From the NCBI GenBank assembly GCA_945947575.1, contig CAMEYM010000013.1, forward strand, positions 1 to 64,000: a DNA stretch of 64,000 bases. Reading direction: 5' to 3'. Both the position numbers and the translations under genes were made by a program. Under the pieces are notes generated by a model. It did not search any database. It was given only the letters and a program-made list of their open reading frames with translations, and was not told where the DNA came from. The DNA is from Rhizobium sp. Q54 (GTDB lineage Bacteria; Pseudomonadota; Alphaproteobacteria; UBA2966; CAIVPW01). This document shows positions 47,602 through 53,218 of this stretch, one piece after another. The first letter of the stretch is position 1; each line of letters begins with the position of its first letter.

Positions 47602-47756
47602 TGGCAGGAAGCCTCCCTTTGGTCCTACTGGCCCGAGACAAACGCTCCCCTCCCGGAAACGCGCTCGGCATAGTTAACGGTAGCCGGGGAAGCCTGCGCG
47701 TGTCGTTCACAAAATCGCGGCCACGCAGCCGCAAAGGCCAGCAAAACCGCTGTTGG

Positions 47757-48980
47757 CTAGGGCAGCAGCCGCTCGATGAACCCACCGCGCAGGCAGTGGT
47801 CACTCGCCATGCTCGACCCATACGCGCCCGCCGGCAGGATGGCGACCCGGTCGCCCTCGGCGAGCGGCGGCAGCAGCCGCTGCCGGGTGAAAACGTCGCC
47901 CGACTCGTTGATGTTGCCGCCGATGCTGACCCGCTCGGTCGCCATTGCCAGCGGCCGGTCGATCACCACGAACTCGAGCTCCAACCCGTAGTGCGCGGCA
48001 TAGACGTTGGCCGCCTGGCCGACGTTGAGGCCCGCCCAGCGCTCACCATTCTTGGTCCACGTTGCGGTCACCTGCGCCACCAGGATGCCGGCGGCGGCGA
48101 CCAGATGCGTACCCAACTCACAGGCGATCACCGGTCCGCCGTGTCCGAACACCTCGCCGATCGCCGCGGCCCACCGCTCGGCGCGGAGGGGATCGTCCCC
48201 CGGGCGCAGGCGACCGCCAAGACCGCCGCCGACGTTGATGCAGCGCAGGTCTGGGACGCGCGGCGCGAGGTCTGCGAGAACCCCGAGGGCACGGCGGAAA
48301 TGGACCTCGTCCTTCCCGCGTATGCCCCAGCCGAGGTGCATGTGCAGTGTGTCTACCACGAGCCCCGCGTCCTGTGCCGCGGCCAACGCCGCGCCGGCGT
48401 CCGCGGGCGACAGGCCGAGCCTGCTGTCGCCGTAGTCGGTGCGGCTGTTGACGCCGTAGCCGACGTGCACGCCCGGATCGATGCGCAAACCGACGCGCGT
48501 GCCGCGCGGCACCAGCTGCGCGTAGCGGCGCAGGGTGGGGGCGTGGTCGAAGTTGACGTGCGGACCCGAGGCGGCGAACGCACGCAGATCCGCCTCGGAG
48601 AGGGATGAAGCCGTCACGGAGATCTGCGCGGCCACGAACCCGGCGCCGCGCGCCACCGCGACCTCGCGCGGCGAGCAGGCATCGATGTCCACGCCCTCGC
48701 GACGCATCAGATCGAGAAGGGGGCCGAAGCGATTGGCCTTCATCGCGTAACAGATGCGGGTTTCTCGGAACGGTGTGAGTGCCGCGCGCACCTCGGCGAT
48801 CTGCACGCGGACGCGAGCGCCGTCATAGAGATACAGCGGTCCGTCCACCTCTGCCGCCAGCTCCGCGACGCTCTGGCCTGCCACTTCCAGTCCATTGGCG
48901 CCGACGGCGAGGGATCCGCCCATCCACCACGGCACTGTATTGGCTGCGACAGGCCCGACGTCCGGCAGCGGGGCGCTCAT
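47757..48980 (-). CDS. fold-III PLP-dependent decarboxylase, diaminopimelate-decarboxylase-like
   Basis: 407 aa. N-terminal TIM barrel with the PLP lysine in CYAMKANRFGPLL, the barrel His in DTLHMHLGWGIRG, and the phosphate-binding NVGGGLGGRL. Several substrate residues differ from true diaminopimelate decarboxylase: the EPGR loop is ELGTH, the catalytic CESGD is NESGD, and the C-terminal YN is DH (GAYGSSMASDHCLR). A different amino acid or a peptide/siderophore precursor is therefore likely. ATG 48980 overlaps the stop of the ABC exporter (ATGA), tying the two together. Confidence 0.85.
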   Translation of the reverse strand: MSAPLPDVGPVAANTVPWWMGGSLAVGANGLEVAGQSVAELAAEVDGPLYLYDGARVRVQIAEVRAALTPFRETRICYAMKANRFGPLLDLMRREGVDIDACSPREVAVARGAGFVAAQISVTASSLSEADLRAFAASGPHVNFDHAPTLRRYAQLVPRGTRVGLRIDPGVHVGYGVNSRTDYGDSRLGLSPADAGAALAAAQDAGLVVDTLHMHLGWGIRGKDEVHFRRALGVLADLAPRVPDLRCINVGGGLGGRLRPGDDPLRAERWAAAIGEVFGHGGPVIACELGTHLVAAAGILVAQVTATWTKNGERWAGLNVGQAANVYAAHYGLELEFVVIDRPLAMATERVSIGGNINESGDVFTRQRLLPPLAEGDRVAILPAGAYGSSMASDHCLRGGFIERLLP

Positions 48981-51139
48981 GCGACGCGCGCCTGCCGGCG
49001 TTGGGATTCTTTCTCGATCTGCGCGCGCAGGTCGGGACGCGTCTGCAGCAGTGCCAGGAACGGGCGGCGGCGCAGCGACAACAGCACGCTCGGCGCCAGG
49101 GTCCGCACGGTCGCCGAGCGCGGCTGGTCGTAGAGGAGGGCGGTCTCGCCGAAGTAGTCCCCGTCGCGCAGCGTCGCGATGCGCCGAGGGCCTCCAGCGT
49201 CGTCGGCGATCACCTCGAGGTCTCCGCGCGCCACGATGAAGAACCGATCGCCCGGGTCGCCCTGATGCACCACTTCGCGGCCGGCCGGATAGATCTCGGG
49301 CTGGAACTGCTGTGCCAGCAATTCAAGGATATCCGGGGCGAGACCGGCAAGCAGCGGTAGCTGCTTCAGGCGCGACGCCTCTACCGTCGCCCAGTCGCCC
49401 TCGGCGCTGACGCCGAAGCCGCTCTGCTTCGCCCACAGCTGCGCGTACAGGCTCCCCTTGCGCAGCAGCTCGTCATGGGTGCCGTGCTCGACCAGCTTGC
49501 CGCCGTCCAAGACGAAGATGCTGTCGGCGCTCGTCGTGGACGACAGGCGGTGGGTGACGGAGAGCACCGTGCGCGTGCGGCCGACGCGTTGCACCGTCTC
49601 GTTCACCGCGGCTTCGGTCGCCGGATCGAGGGCGCTAGTGGCCTCGTCGAGCACCAGTACCGATGGGTTGCGCAGGAGAGCGCGCGCAATGGCGAGGCGT
49701 TGGCGCTGGCCGCCCGACAGGCGCACGCCGCCCTCGCCGAGCATGGTGTCGAGGCCGCTGGGCAGCTTGTTGACGAGGTCCAGGAGTTCCGCATCGGCGA
49801 GCGCAACGCGCATCTCGTCGTCGGTTGCGTCTGCCTTGCCGACCCGCAGATTGGCCCGAACCGTGTCACGGAAGACGACGTTGTCCTGGAAGACGACCGC
49901 CATCTGACCGCGCAGCGACGCTTGCGTCAGTTCGCGGACGTCTCGCCCGTCCCACCGCACCGAACCGTCTTGCGCATCGAAGAAGCGCAGCACCAGGTTG
50001 AGGACGGTCGACTTGCCAGACCCGCTCGGTCCGACGAACGCGCAGTAGGAGTTGCGCGGCACGCGCAGGCTGACCTCGCGCAGGTTCGGCCGCTCCGCCG
50101 AATATCCGAACGTGACGCGATCGAGCTCGATGCCGTCGGCAAGCGGCGACGCTTCGCCGGAATTGCTGCGGTCGGCGACGGAGACCTCTTCTGCCAGGGC
50201 GTCGTCGATGCGCCCCAGGCCGGAGTCTGCTGCGATGAAGTAGGGATGCGACCACGTGATGCCGCCGACCGATGCGCTGAGGCCTGTCGATAGGGCATAG
50301 AAAGAGACGAGCGATCCGATGCTCATGTCGCCGCGGAACACCAGCAGCGAGCCCACCACCAGAATCCCCATGTTGAAGGCGAGCATGGTGAGATTCGGCG
50401 TACGCTCGACCAGGGCGCCGAGAATCTGCGCTCGCGTCGATAAGGCAAGGTAGTTGCCAAGGTTGCGACGAAAGCGTTCCAGCAGGCTGCCCTGCATGCC
50501 GAACGCCAGCACCGTCTGGTGGGCGGCGAGATCCTCGTGGACGCGTGCCGCGAATTGGGCCTGTTCCTCGCGCACGCGCCGGCTCGCCCGCAGAGCGCGG
50601 CCGCCGAGTAGCCAGGGTCCGGCGGTCGAGAGCGCCAGTCCTGCCATCGCAAGCAGCGCCAGCTTCCACTCCAGGGTGAAGAGCAACGCGCTGCTGATGC
50701 AAAGTCCGAGGGTGCCGGTGAGCGCCCACGGAATGCCGGACGCGAGACTCTGTTCCACCGCACTCAGGTCGGTGGTGAAGTGTGCGACCAGGGTGGGCGT
50801 TGCCGTCTTCGCGTGGAACCCGACGCTCTGGCGCTGCAGGCGGACATAAAGACGTTCGCGCACCCCCGCTAACAGCCTCTCGCCCAGGCGCGCGTGCAAG
50901 ACGTCGCGGCCGATCGCCACGAAGCAGTAGACGACAGCGGCGCCGACCACGCCGCCCAGTAGCGGGAGCAGCAGCGTCGCGTTGCGCGGCGTCAGAACGT
51001 CGTCGATCAGTACCTGGATGACGAGCGGCAGCAGCGCGCTTTCGAACGCGCTCGTTGCCAGGAACAACGCCGCGACAAGGAGGAACGCCCCCCAGTGCCC
51101 GCGCACAAGCGTCGGCAACCGGCGGATGAACCCAATCAT
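48977..51139 (-). CDS. ABC exporter (fused TMD-NBD) with C-terminal cyclic-nucleotide-binding domain
   Basis: 720 aa from ATG 51139; longer frames are Arg-rich and unrelated. A six-helix type I exporter domain (about 15-300) is followed by an ATPase with Walker A VGPSGSGKSTVLN, signature RLSGGQRQRLAIARALL, Walker B VLVLDEATSALDP and H-loop SVTHRLS. The last 130 residues are a Crp-type cNMP domain with GREVVHQGDPGDRFF and the intact phosphate cassette FGETALLYDQPRSATVR. Export may thus be gated by a cyclic nucleotide. Coupled by ATGA to a PLP decarboxylase. Substrate unknown. Confidence 0.92.
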   Translation of the reverse strand: MIGFIRRLPTLVRGHWGAFLLVAALFLATSAFESALLPLVIQVLIDDVLTPRNATLLLPLLGGVVGAAVVYCFVAIGRDVLHARLGERLLAGVRERLYVRLQRQSVGFHAKTATPTLVAHFTTDLSAVEQSLASGIPWALTGTLGLCISSALLFTLEWKLALLAMAGLALSTAGPWLLGGRALRASRRVREEQAQFAARVHEDLAAHQTVLAFGMQGSLLERFRRNLGNYLALSTRAQILGALVERTPNLTMLAFNMGILVVGSLLVFRGDMSIGSLVSFYALSTGLSASVGGITWSHPYFIAADSGLGRIDDALAEEVSVADRSNSGEASPLADGIELDRVTFGYSAERPNLREVSLRVPRNSYCAFVGPSGSGKSTVLNLVLRFFDAQDGSVRWDGRDVRELTQASLRGQMAVVFQDNVVFRDTVRANLRVGKADATDDEMRVALADAELLDLVNKLPSGLDTMLGEGGVRLSGGQRQRLAIARALLRNPSVLVLDEATSALDPATEAAVNETVQRVGRTRTVLSVTHRLSSTTSADSIFVLDGGKLVEHGTHDELLRKGSLYAQLWAKQSGFGVSAEGDWATVEASRLKQLPLLAGLAPDILELLAQQFQPEIYPAGREVVHQGDPGDRFFIVARGDLEVIADDAGGPRRIATLRDGDYFGETALLYDQPRSATVRTLAPSVLLSLRRRPFLALLQTRPDLRAQIEKESQRRQARVA

Positions 51140-51387
51140 GCCGGGGGGATCGCCGTTCCGGTGCGCCGGAATCTGCGCAGTGGCGCACGCGCCATGTCCG
51201 TCGCGGGCGCAGCGAACCGAAGTTTCCTGCGAGGATGGATCATGACGCCAGAGGGAACCATACCGGCGCCCGCCGCCAGATGCCATGGTGGCCGTTCGCG
51301 GCAGCCGCCGTGCGCTGCGGGCGGCTTGGCCTGGGCGAGCGCATGGGACTAACATCGCGCCCCGGGACCAGTAGGGGAGGGTTTGAG

Positions 51388-52695
51388 ATGGCGAAGACTC
51401 CGAACGAGGCGCAACCGTTCGCGGACGCCGAGCCGGTTGCGGCCAACGGCTTGCTGCATCGCCGGCTGTTCTTGAGCGGCGGCGCATTCTTTGCAGGGGC
51501 ATCAGCGCTGAGCGGTGTGCTGGGAGCTCGGCCTGCATCCGCGCAGATGGCGACCGTGCCGGATTGGCGCAAGGAGCCAGGCAAGTCGTTCACGCCCTAC
51601 GGCGTGCCGTCGCGATTCGAGGAGCCGGTGCAGCGCCTCGTCACCGTGCGCGCGCCCAGCTATCCGAGCCCCGGCGCCGGCTCGTCGCGCACTCCGTTGC
51701 ACCTGCTCGAGGGCATCATCACGCCGAGTGGCTTGCACTTCGAGCGCAGCCACAGCGGCGTGCCCGACATTGATCCCGATCGCCACCGGCTCCTGATCCA
51801 CGGCCTGGTGCGTCAGCCGCTGGTGTTCGATCTCGAATCGCTGATGCGCTACCCGCGCGTGTCGGCCATCCATTTCATCGAGTGCGCCGGCAACAGCGGC
51901 GGCGGCTGGGCCGCCCAACCGCCCGTCGGCTTCGTCGCCACGATGCACGGCCTTCTGTCGTGCTCAGAGTGGACCGGCGTGCCGCTGCACTACCTCTTGG
52001 AGGAAGCAGGCATCGATCCCAAGGCAAAGTGGATCCTGGCCGAAGGCATCGACGCCGCGGCCATGAGCCGCAGCGTTCCCCTCGACAAGTGCTTGGGCGA
52101 CGCGATGGTCGCGCTCTTCCAGAACGGCGAGCGCATCCGGCCCGAGCAGGGCTACCCCATGCGCCTGTTGCTGCCCGGGTGGGAAGGCAACATGAACGTC
52201 AAGTGGCTGCACCGCATCAAGGTGACCGAGGGCCCGACCCACACCAAGGACGAGACATCGAAGTACACGGAGCTGATGCCGGACGGAAAGTCGATGCAGT
52301 TCACCTTCCCCATGGAGGTGAAGTCGGTCATCACGCGTCCGTCCGAGGGCATCAACATGCAGGGCCCGGGGTTCTACGAGATCTCCGGGTTCGCCTGGTC
52401 GGGCAACGGCAAGATCAAGCGCGTCGACGTCTCGGCCGACGGTGGCGCCTCGTGGGCGGAGGCCGCCCTGCAGGAACCGATCGCCAGCCGCGCGCTGACG
52501 CGCTTCCGCCTGCCGTGGCAGTGGGATGGCCGTGAGGTCATTCTGCAAAGCCGCGCCACCGACGAAACCGGTGCCGTGCAGCCAACGCGCGCCGAGCTGA
52601 TCGGCTCGAAGGGCATCAAAAACGCCTACCACTACAACGGCATTACGACCTGGGAGGTCCGTGCGAGCGGACTCGTGAAGAATGTTTGGGCGTAA
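51388..52695 (+). CDS. soxC: sulfite dehydrogenase/SoxC-type molybdopterin oxidoreductase
   Basis: 435 aa from ATG 51388 with GGAGG upstream. An N-terminal LHRRLFLSGGAFFAGASALS resembles a Tat-type export signal, in keeping with a periplasmic molybdenum enzyme. Moco-binding Cys in IHFIECAGNSGGGW, and SoxC landmarks GYPMRLLLPGWEGNMNVKWL, RSVPLDKCLGDAM and TRPSEGINMQGPGFYEISGF. The C-terminal dimerisation domain begins near residue 320. Overlaps the cytochrome gene by 14 bp. The other sox genes (soxXYZAB) are absent here, so it may work as a stand-alone sulfite or sulfur-intermediate dehydrogenase. Confidence 0.9.
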   Translation: MAKTPNEAQPFADAEPVAANGLLHRRLFLSGGAFFAGASALSGVLGARPASAQMATVPDWRKEPGKSFTPYGVPSRFEEPVQRLVTVRAPSYPSPGAGSSRTPLHLLEGIITPSGLHFERSHSGVPDIDPDRHRLLIHGLVRQPLVFDLESLMRYPRVSAIHFIECAGNSGGGWAAQPPVGFVATMHGLLSCSEWTGVPLHYLLEEAGIDPKAKWILAEGIDAAAMSRSVPLDKCLGDAMVALFQNGERIRPEQGYPMRLLLPGWEGNMNVKWLHRIKVTEGPTHTKDETSKYTELMPDGKSMQFTFPMEVKSVITRPSEGINMQGPGFYEISGFAWSGNGKIKRVDVSADGGASWAEAALQEPIASRALTRFRLPWQWDGREVILQSRATDETGAVQPTRAELIGSKGIKNAYHYNGITTWEVRASGLVKNVWA

Positions 52696-53218
52696 GGTTT
52701 TGCTCGGCGGTATGACCGCCACGGCCCTCGTTGCGGCCAGCACGGCGCTCGCCGTCGATCCGCCGAAGCTCGGCCAGCCGGCGCCGGAGATGCTGATCCG
52801 GCTGTTCGACATCAGCATCCCTCCCGACGGCACCGGCCTGCCGCCCGGCCAGGCAACCGCCAAGCAGGGCGAGGCGGTGTTCATCGCGCGCTGTGCCGCG
52901 TGTCACGGCGAAAAGGGCGAGGGCGCCACCAACGATCGTCTCGCCAGCGGCGTAGGCACGCTGCAGGACGAGATTCAGACGTTCAAGACGGTCGGCAGCT
53001 ACTGGCCCTACGCGACAACCCTGTTCGACTACGTGCGCCGGGCGATGCCCTACAACGCACCTCTCTCGCTCACCGATGAGGAGGTGTACGCGGCGACTGC
53101 CTACGTCCTGTTCCTGAACCGGATCATCGGCGAGACCGACGTCATCAACGCCCAGTCCCTACCCGCGGTGAAGATGCCGAACCGCGACGCCTTCATCAAC
53201 GCCTACGCGCCGCGCTGA
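52682..53218 (+). CDS. monohaem c-type cytochrome, SoxD/SorB-like
   Basis: 178 aa with an export signal (VLLGGMTATALVAASTALAV). Haem c attachment site CAACH in VFIARCAACHGEKGEG; a methionine in RRAMPYNAPLSLTDEEV is the likely axial ligand. Longer diheme SoxD proteins have about 380 aa, so this is the shorter single-haem form. It starts inside soxC and is evidently the electron acceptor of that dehydrogenase. Confidence 0.9.
   Translation: MFGRKVLLGGMTATALVAASTALAVDPPKLGQPAPEMLIRLFDISIPPDGTGLPPGQATAKQGEAVFIARCAACHGEKGEGATNDRLASGVGTLQDEIQTFKTVGSYWPYATTLFDYVRRAMPYNAPLSLTDEEVYAATAYVLFLNRIIGETDVINAQSLPAVKMPNRDAFINAYAPR

What the first reader, a model, noticed from the sequence alone, without database searches (positions are those of the whole stretch)
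47757..51139. cNMP-gated ABC exporter coupled to a divergent PLP decarboxylase: a possible make-and-export module
An ABC exporter with all motifs and a complete Crp-type cyclic-nucleotide cassette (FGETALLYDQPRSATVR) is translationally coupled (ATGA) to a fold-III decarboxylase. Seen in sequence: the fusion, the overlap, the motifs. Inference: the decarboxylase makes a polyamine- or siderophore-like product and the transporter exports it when a cyclic nucleotide binds. I know of no described system with this exact pairing.
Basis: partly seen in the sequence, partly recalled or inferred. Interest (0 to 1): 0.6.

Follow-up and report, generated by a model that had tools for sequence, protein, structure and literature searches.

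The report
cNMP-domain exporter beside S-methylmethionine-type decarboxylase
A membrane exporter with a built-in cyclic-nucleotide sensor is encoded together with an enzyme that belongs not to the polyamine or siderophore decarboxylases but to the branch that makes the sulfur osmolyte DMSP from methylated methionine, which hints at a small-molecule make-and-export unit switched by a second messenger.

Summary
On the minus strand, a 720-aa ABC exporter with a C-terminal cNMP domain overlaps (ATGA) a 407-aa fold-III PLP decarboxylase. The exact pair occurs only in the window genome and one sister species. A third species of the genus has the decarboxylase alone.

The proposed polyamine or siderophore product is not supported. 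The decarboxylase falls in one strongly supported clade (100/99) with enzymes that sit beside methionine S-methyltransferases. Two overlap a BurB-type SET gene, two are next to an MmtN-type gene, and one lies in a KARI/FkbH/NRPS cluster. This is the setting of S-methylmethionine (SMM) decarboxylases (BurI/SMMDC) of DMSP synthesis. The clade has Asn for the catalytic Cys and lacks the diaminopimelate-binding Arg.

In the sister species a SET methyltransferase gene precedes the exporter; the window keeps only a 35-codon remnant. The ancestral unit was therefore SET – cNMP exporter – decarboxylase.

Best reading: decarboxylation of a methylated, probably sulfonium, amino acid, with the amine or its product exported under second-messenger control. 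Clade placement is well supported. Substrate, exported compound and gating are inference. The genome carries 22 cNMP domains and 9 nucleotide-cyclase matches, so the sensor is plausible but not special to this locus.

The parts
48977..51139 (-). ABC exporter with C-terminal cNMP domain, 720 aa (TMD-NBD-cNMP half transporter)
   Evidence: best curated hits are MsbA_rel and NHLP/MsbA exporters, all far below cut-off
50270..51079 (-). transmembrane domain (ABC_membrane, residues 21-290)
49634..50083 (-). nucleotide-binding domain (ABC_tran, residues 353-502)
49040..49291 (-). cNMP-binding domain (residues 617-700)
49103..49153 (-). phosphate-binding cassette FGETALLYDQPRSATVR (residues 663-679), Glu and Arg present
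   Evidence: sequence; aligned to solved PKG chains
48977..48980 (-). ATGA stop/start overlap of the two genes
47757..48980 (-). fold-III (alanine-racemase fold) PLP decarboxylase, 407 aa, S-methylmethionine-decarboxylase (BurI/SMMDC-type) clade
   Evidence: AlphaFold model pLDDT 86, best PDB fold matches are diaminopimelate decarboxylases
48738..48740 (-). PLP-binding Lys81 (ICYAMKAN), kept
48000..48002 (-). Tyr327 in place of the diaminopimelate-binding Arg; Glu in the methyltransferase-linked relatives
   Evidence: role of the Arg from PMC7857480
47907..47909 (-). Asn358 in place of the catalytic Cys of CESGD
51136..51243 (-). 35-codon remnant of a SET-domain methyltransferase gene (MIHPRRKLRFAAPAT...), stop overlapping the ABC start as ATGA; the intact 217-aa gene stands at this place in the sister species (L005:5184-5837)
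47715..47734 (-). terminator-like stem just downstream of the decarboxylase stop (weak: 2 found, 1.7 expected)

Best explanation
The locus is what remains of a three-gene unit: SET methyltransferase - cNMP-domain ABC exporter - PLP decarboxylase. The decarboxylase is a diverged member of the S-methylmethionine decarboxylase (BurI/SMMDC-type) clade. It most likely removes the alpha-carboxylate from a methylated, positively charged amino acid, with S-methylmethionine to DMSP-amine as first candidate. In the ancestral unit the SET enzyme would have made the methylated substrate; in the window genome that step must come from elsewhere, for example other SET genes in the genome. The homodimeric ABC exporter would carry the onium amine or its onward product out of the cytoplasm, and its C-terminal cNMP domain would raise or lower transport when a cyclic nucleotide (or, as in HetC, another nucleotide messenger) binds. 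Shown: gene structure, cassette residues, clade membership, the clade's linkage to methionine S-methyltransferases, and the lost SET gene. Inferred: substrate, exported compound, gating and its direction.
For: (1) A maximum-likelihood tree puts the window enzyme and its two congeners in one clade (UFBoot 100 / SH-aLRT 99) with homologues from Eleftheria, two sphingomonad-type genomes, Rhodovulum and Rhizobium, apart from LysA and the Aminicenantes enzymes. (2) All eight have Asn for the catalytic Cys, whereas in the 46-row alignment A2 all 44 rows other than the window and L005 have Cys. Position 291 is Asp or Thr instead of Arg/Lys, and position 327 is Glu or Tyr instead of the diaminopimelate-binding Arg. 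(3) Clade members lie beside methionine S-methyltransferases: in S. paeninsulae and G627 the gene overlaps a SET gene whose best solved relative is BurB (E 2.2e-32 and 3.6e-41). In R. lusitanum and Rhodovulum it is followed by an MmtN-type methyltransferase (Rhizobium protein E 3.9e-105 to 7vvv, the MmtN structure; the two are 52% identical), with a class-III aminotransferase in Rhodovulum. In Eleftheria it sits with KARI, FkbH and thioester-reductase assembly-line genes, resembling the setting of burI (PMC7496086; PMC9135737; KARI link from own knowledge). BurI loss accumulates SMM; BurI and SMMDC are reported to catalyse this step (PMC11464771). (4) The sister species has a SET gene directly before the exporter, and a third species has a cNMP-ABC gene directly before two SET genes. 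(5) The two sphingomonad-type loci also carry an MFS-HEAT transporter and a small Crp-like protein. (6) The own genome has 9 nucleotide-cyclase matches, and in G004 another cNMP-ABC gene follows a class III cyclase gene.
Against: The window sub-branch is long (about 1.3 changes per site) and has Tyr327/Thr291 where the BurB/MmtN-linked members have Glu/Asp, so the substrate may have shifted. The G002 congener even has Asn at the otherwise invariant His215. The sister species' SET protein matches BurB only in the SET/post-SET part (E 2.3e-6) and has Gly and Ala at the positions of SAM-binding Arg133 and His138 of BurB, so it is not shown to be a methionine methyltransferase. The exact pair is confined to two species, and G002 has the decarboxylase without a nearby exporter. 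SET pairs are common genes of this family, so the ABC-SET neighbourhood in G002 could be chance. BurI and SMMDC sequences themselves were not compared. No transport or binding data exist.
Confidence: 0.42

Rival explanations
1. The decarboxylase is a polyamine-, diaminopimelate- or siderophore-type enzyme, and the exporter releases a polyamine or siderophore.
For: Same fold and broad family; nearest solved structures are diaminopimelate decarboxylases. AR-fold decarboxylases do act in siderophore pathways (PMC7857480).
Against: The genome has another LysA-like enzyme (G000:C3). The catalytic Cys and the diaminopimelate Arg are lost. Curated lysA cut-off not reached (198.5 of 297.9). The clade's neighbours are methionine S-methyltransferases. 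None of the six window genes scanned (the pair and four flanking genes) is siderophore-related.
Confidence: 0.12
2. Same clade, different chemistry: with Asn for Cys the enzyme performs decarboxylation-dependent transamination or oxidation and yields an aldehyde, or it acts on another methylated amino acid such as a trimethylated lysine made by the lysine-type SET enzyme.
For: A Cys387 variant of D-ornithine/D-lysine decarboxylase was solved with PMP and 4-guanidinobutanal (title). The sister species' SET keeps the NHSC motif and lacks BurB-specific residues.
Against: Asn is conserved in clade members whose setting implies plain SMM decarboxylation. An invariant H-C-[LM]-R-G near the C-terminus in the members that are complete there could supply a replacement residue, but its position is modelled with pLDDT below 50.
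Confidence: 0.22
3. The two genes are neighbours by chance: a generic cNMP-ABC exporter of an expanded family landed before an unrelated decarboxylase, and the ATGA overlap is ordinary gene packing.
For: Pair found in two species only; G002 has the decarboxylase elsewhere without an exporter. Five more cNMP-ABC genes in G002, G004 and G347 have other neighbours, G347 has a further match whose surroundings were not read, and the genome has 22 cNMP domains.
Against: Pair and overlap survive in the sister species at 83-90% protein identity with dN/dS 0.09-0.18. A SET, decarboxylase and transporter association recurs in two sphingomonad-type genomes.
Confidence: 0.24

Closest known systems
BurI / SMMDC, S-methylmethionine decarboxylases of DMSP synthesis (Burkholderia thailandensis, Streptomyces mobaraensis)
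   Same: fold-III decarboxylase; clade members share the same kinds of gene setting (BurB-type SET, MmtN, KARI/FkbH/NRPS)
   Different: window branch is 33-41% identical to the clade's members outside its genus, has Tyr327/Thr291, and stands with a cNMP-ABC exporter; BurI and SMMDC sequences themselves were not compared here
HetC of Nostoc PCC 7120 (PMC10986499)
   Same: ABC exporter with a covalently attached cNMP-type domain that is needed for function
   Different: HetC carries the domain at the N-terminus with a C39 peptidase and binds ppGpp, not cAMP; the window protein has no peptidase and a C-terminal domain with an intact cyclic-nucleotide cassette
Diaminopimelate decarboxylase LysA (1knw, 3vab, 2qgh)
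   Same: fold, PLP Lys, Gly-rich loop, ESGD acid pair, GAY tyrosine
   Different: catalytic Cys to Asn, EPGR to ELGT, substrate Arg to Tyr; below the lysA cut-off; a separate LysA-like gene exists
BurB SET-domain methionine S-methyltransferase (9l4t, PMC12542666)
   Same: close match of the SET genes overlapping the sphingomonad-type clade members; best solved relative of the sister species' SET gene
   Different: the sister species' SET protein has Gly/Ala at BurB Arg133/His138; the window keeps only a remnant

Membership tests
BurI/SMMDC S-methylmethionine decarboxylase clade | falls in one supported clade with decarboxylases of methionine S-methylation loci | tested here: met
   100/99 support, 8 rows, one origin; loci with BurB-type SET or MmtN
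BurI/SMMDC S-methylmethionine decarboxylase clade | Asn at the Cys position and no Arg at position 327 | tested here: met
   but Tyr instead of the Glu seen in the S-methyltransferase-linked members
BurI/SMMDC S-methylmethionine decarboxylase clade | methionine S-methyltransferase gene in the same locus | tested here: inconclusive
   SET gene intact in the sister species, remnant in the window; it lacks BurB-specific residues
BurI/SMMDC S-methylmethionine decarboxylase clade | direct sequence relation to characterised BurI or SMMDC | not tested
   no SMMDC record in the collections used; BurI deliberately not fetched (see referred steps)
BurI/SMMDC S-methylmethionine decarboxylase clade | decarboxylates S-methylmethionine | not testable with these tools
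   needs an enzyme assay
Diaminopimelate decarboxylase (LysA) | catalytic Cys in C-E-S-x-D | tested here: not met
   Asn358
Diaminopimelate decarboxylase (LysA) | Arg that binds the distal carboxylate of diaminopimelate | tested here: not met
   Tyr327; role from PMC7857480
Diaminopimelate decarboxylase (LysA) | reaches the curated lysA score | tested here: not met
   198.5 against 297.9 bits
BurB (SET methionine S-methyltransferase), for the sister species' SET gene | SAM-binding His72, Arg133, His138 | tested here: not met
   Gly and Ala at 133 and 138, region of His72 not aligned (against residues)
Type IV ABC exporter (ABCB/MsbA-like half transporter) | TMD plus NBD with Walker A, signature, Walker B and H-loop | tested here: met
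Ligand-binding cNMP domain | phosphate-binding cassette with Glu and Arg | tested here: met
   FGETALLYDQPRSATV aligned to solved cyclic-nucleotide sites
Ligand-binding cNMP domain | binds a cyclic nucleotide and changes transport | not testable with these tools
   HetC shows that such domains can bind ppGpp instead

The most novel reading that the evidence does not exclude
A second-messenger-gated sulfonium-metabolite unit: a SET enzyme and a Cys-less PLP decarboxylase make a DMSP-type onium amine, and a fused cNMP sensor opens or closes a dedicated ABC exporter for it, so that release of a DMSP-type compound by these bacteria is set directly by a nucleotide messenger.
Probability: 0.2. Interest if true: 0.72.

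Novelty: new variant of a known kind. Interest (0 to 1): 0.46.

Why it matters
No exporter came up in the passages of the DMSP papers read here, and ABC exporters with attached nucleotide sensors have one experimental precedent found here (HetC). If the unit works as inferred, it joins S-methylmethionine-type metabolism, export and second-messenger control in one short operon and gives a testable protein pair. Independently, the Arg-to-Glu/Tyr and Cys-to-Asn signature of the clade may let genome annotators tell these enzymes from the 'diaminopimelate decarboxylase' label they now carry.

Tried and rejected
Polyamine/siderophore reading: no support (see rivals). Aminicenantes homologues (33%, shared NWWE start) as the same system: rejected, since they keep Cys and follow an unrelated gene without an ABC exporter. 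Protein-family libraries: no curated family names the decarboxylase or the exporter above cut-off, and none names the SET genes. Shared methyltransferase in G002: the gene next to the lone decarboxylase is convergent and matches a protein lysine methyltransferase (8hkr), not MmtN. Tandem SET genes as a fixed partner of cNMP-ABC genes: rejected, they are present without the exporter in other relatives. Replacement of the catalytic Cys by C396: plausible but not modelled with confidence (pLDDT below 50 at 393-396). Plasmid records: no relative of the exporter covering 80% of the query at E 1e-60. Paper searches for a described SET/decarboxylase/cNMP system found none.
Full report
What is there. 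The window lies in a 2.49-Mb, 40-contig, 96%-complete draft genome; its closest named relative is a MAG contig (L005). On the minus strand an ABC exporter gene (48977-51139, 720 aa) overlaps a PLP decarboxylase gene (47757-48980, 407 aa) by ATGA. Pfam finds ABC_membrane, ABC_tran and cNMP_binding in the first and both Orn/DAP/Arg decarboxylase domains in the second. The cNMP cassette FGETALLYDQPRSATVR has the Glu and Arg that hold the ribose and cyclic phosphate (own knowledge) and aligns with solved PKG and PKA sites. Against the sister species both genes show dN/dS well below 1 (0.09 and 0.18), so both are maintained.

How widespread is the pair. Among 15 genomes of the order, the decarboxylase occurs in three of one genus: the window genome, G004 (83%) and G002 (58%). 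In G004 (the same contig as L005) the exporter (90%) stands before it with the same overlap; in G002 the decarboxylase stands alone. In 385 genomes of the class only G004 and one other genome hold a strong exporter match, and that other gene lies next to an acetolactate-synthase-like gene. In the class sample no clear member of this decarboxylase clade appeared outside the genus at E 1e-32, and a profile search of 398 genomes of the phylum added one (G627). The exact pair is therefore narrow, and probably young.

A third gene was lost. In G004/L005 a 217-aa SET-domain gene (L005:5184-5837) ends one base before the exporter start. The window aligns to L005 on both sides but lacks about 575 bases there, and keeps a 35-codon remnant (51136-51243, MIHPRRKLRFAAPAT...) whose stop overlaps the exporter start, again as ATGA. 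The older arrangement was thus most likely SET - exporter - decarboxylase. In G002 a cNMP-ABC gene stands directly before two SET genes, but such SET pairs are present without the exporter in other relatives, so this second link is weaker.

What the decarboxylase is. LysA function is unlikely: the genome has another LysA-like gene, the lysA cut-off is not reached, Cys358 is Asn, the EPGR Arg is Thr, and the Arg that binds the distal carboxylate of diaminopimelate (PMC7857480) is Tyr327. A plasmid search brought four homologues with the same Asn. Their surroundings are telling. In Sphingomonas paeninsulae the gene overlaps a SET gene, and G627 has the same order; the best solved relative of both SET proteins is BurB (E 2.2e-32 and 3.6e-41). 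BurB methylates methionine to S-methylmethionine (PMC12542666). In Rhizobium lusitanum and Rhodovulum the gene is followed by a methyltransferase; the Rhizobium protein matches 7vvv at E 3.9e-105, which is the MmtN structure (PMC9135737), and the two methyltransferases are 52% identical. In Eleftheria it lies with KARI, FkbH, AMP-binding and thioester-reductase assembly-line genes, resembling the setting in which DMSP is made as a natural-product precursor (PMC7496086; PMC9135737). In those pathways the next enzyme after S-methylmethionine is a decarboxylase, BurI or SMMDC. A 30-row tree puts window, G004, G002 and these five in one clade, 100/99, one change in all 200 bootstrap trees. At three positions the methyltransferase-linked members read Asp291/Glu327/Asn358, the LysA rows Arg/Arg/Cys, and the window branch Thr/Tyr/Asn. 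Loss of a carboxylate-binding Arg for Glu or Tyr fits a substrate with a positive side chain such as a sulfonium; that is inference.

What remains open. The window branch is long and differs from the methyltransferase-linked members, and the sister species' SET protein has Gly and Ala where BurB uses Arg133 and His138. The substrate could therefore be S-methylmethionine, another onium amino acid, or something else. Replacement of the catalytic Cys can redirect such enzymes: a Cys387 variant of D-ornithine/D-lysine decarboxylase was solved with PMP and an aldehyde (title). I did not compare with the BurI or SMMDC sequences themselves, so the name rests on gene setting and clade, not on identity to an assayed enzyme.

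The exporter and its sensor. The genome has 22 cNMP matches and 9 nucleotide-cyclase matches. cNMP domains are joined there to a Na/H exchanger, an MscS-type channel, a CheB-like domain and an acetyltransferase domain as well as to Crp-type regulators. In G004 another cNMP-ABC gene follows a class III cyclase gene with a DUF5939 domain. Nucleotide control of a transporter is thus in keeping with this lineage, but the sensor is not special to this locus. HetC shows that an ABC exporter can depend on such a domain and also warns that the ligand may be ppGpp.

Conclusion. The membership claim is limited to the clade; the full functional account is given 0.42.

Noticed in passing
window 51136-51243 (-): 35-codon remnant of a SET gene that is intact in L005; the roughly 575-base deletion left a short ORF whose stop overlaps the exporter start, so translational coupling may persist. 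An assembly fault is not excluded.
   Followed up: yes
L189:11480-12001 and L195:12456-12917: BurB-type SET genes in Sphingomonas paeninsulae and G627, overlapping a BurI-type decarboxylase; PMC9135737 (2022) places BurB only in some Burkholderia.
   Followed up: partly
L189:3355-13218 and L195:11224-19999: Shared locus: SpoIIE-type phosphatase, MFS-HEAT transporter, HAMP protein, small Crp-like protein, STAS, ATP-binding anti-sigma-like protein, SET, decarboxylase. A partner-switch set beside DMSP-type genes.
   Followed up: partly
G000 (whole genome): 22 cNMP-binding domains and 9 nucleotide-cyclase matches in 2.49 Mb, with cNMP joined to a Na/H exchanger, an MscS-type channel, CheB and acetyltransferase domains.
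   Followed up: partly
G000:C6:50433-56071 (L157): MscS-type channel with cNMP domain about 4 kb from a class III cyclase gene.
   Followed up: no
G004:C6:10528-15480 (L116:2529-7481): DUF5939/class III cyclase gene directly before a cNMP-ABC exporter gene; the corresponding place in G000 (L149) has the cyclase without the exporter.
   Followed up: partly
L088:1-11157: Very long repetitive RTX-like protein near the lone decarboxylase of G002.
   Followed up: no
window 51379-53218 (+): soxC-type sulfite dehydrogenase gene (above curated cut-off) overlapping a cytochrome c gene, divergent from the exporter.
   Followed up: no
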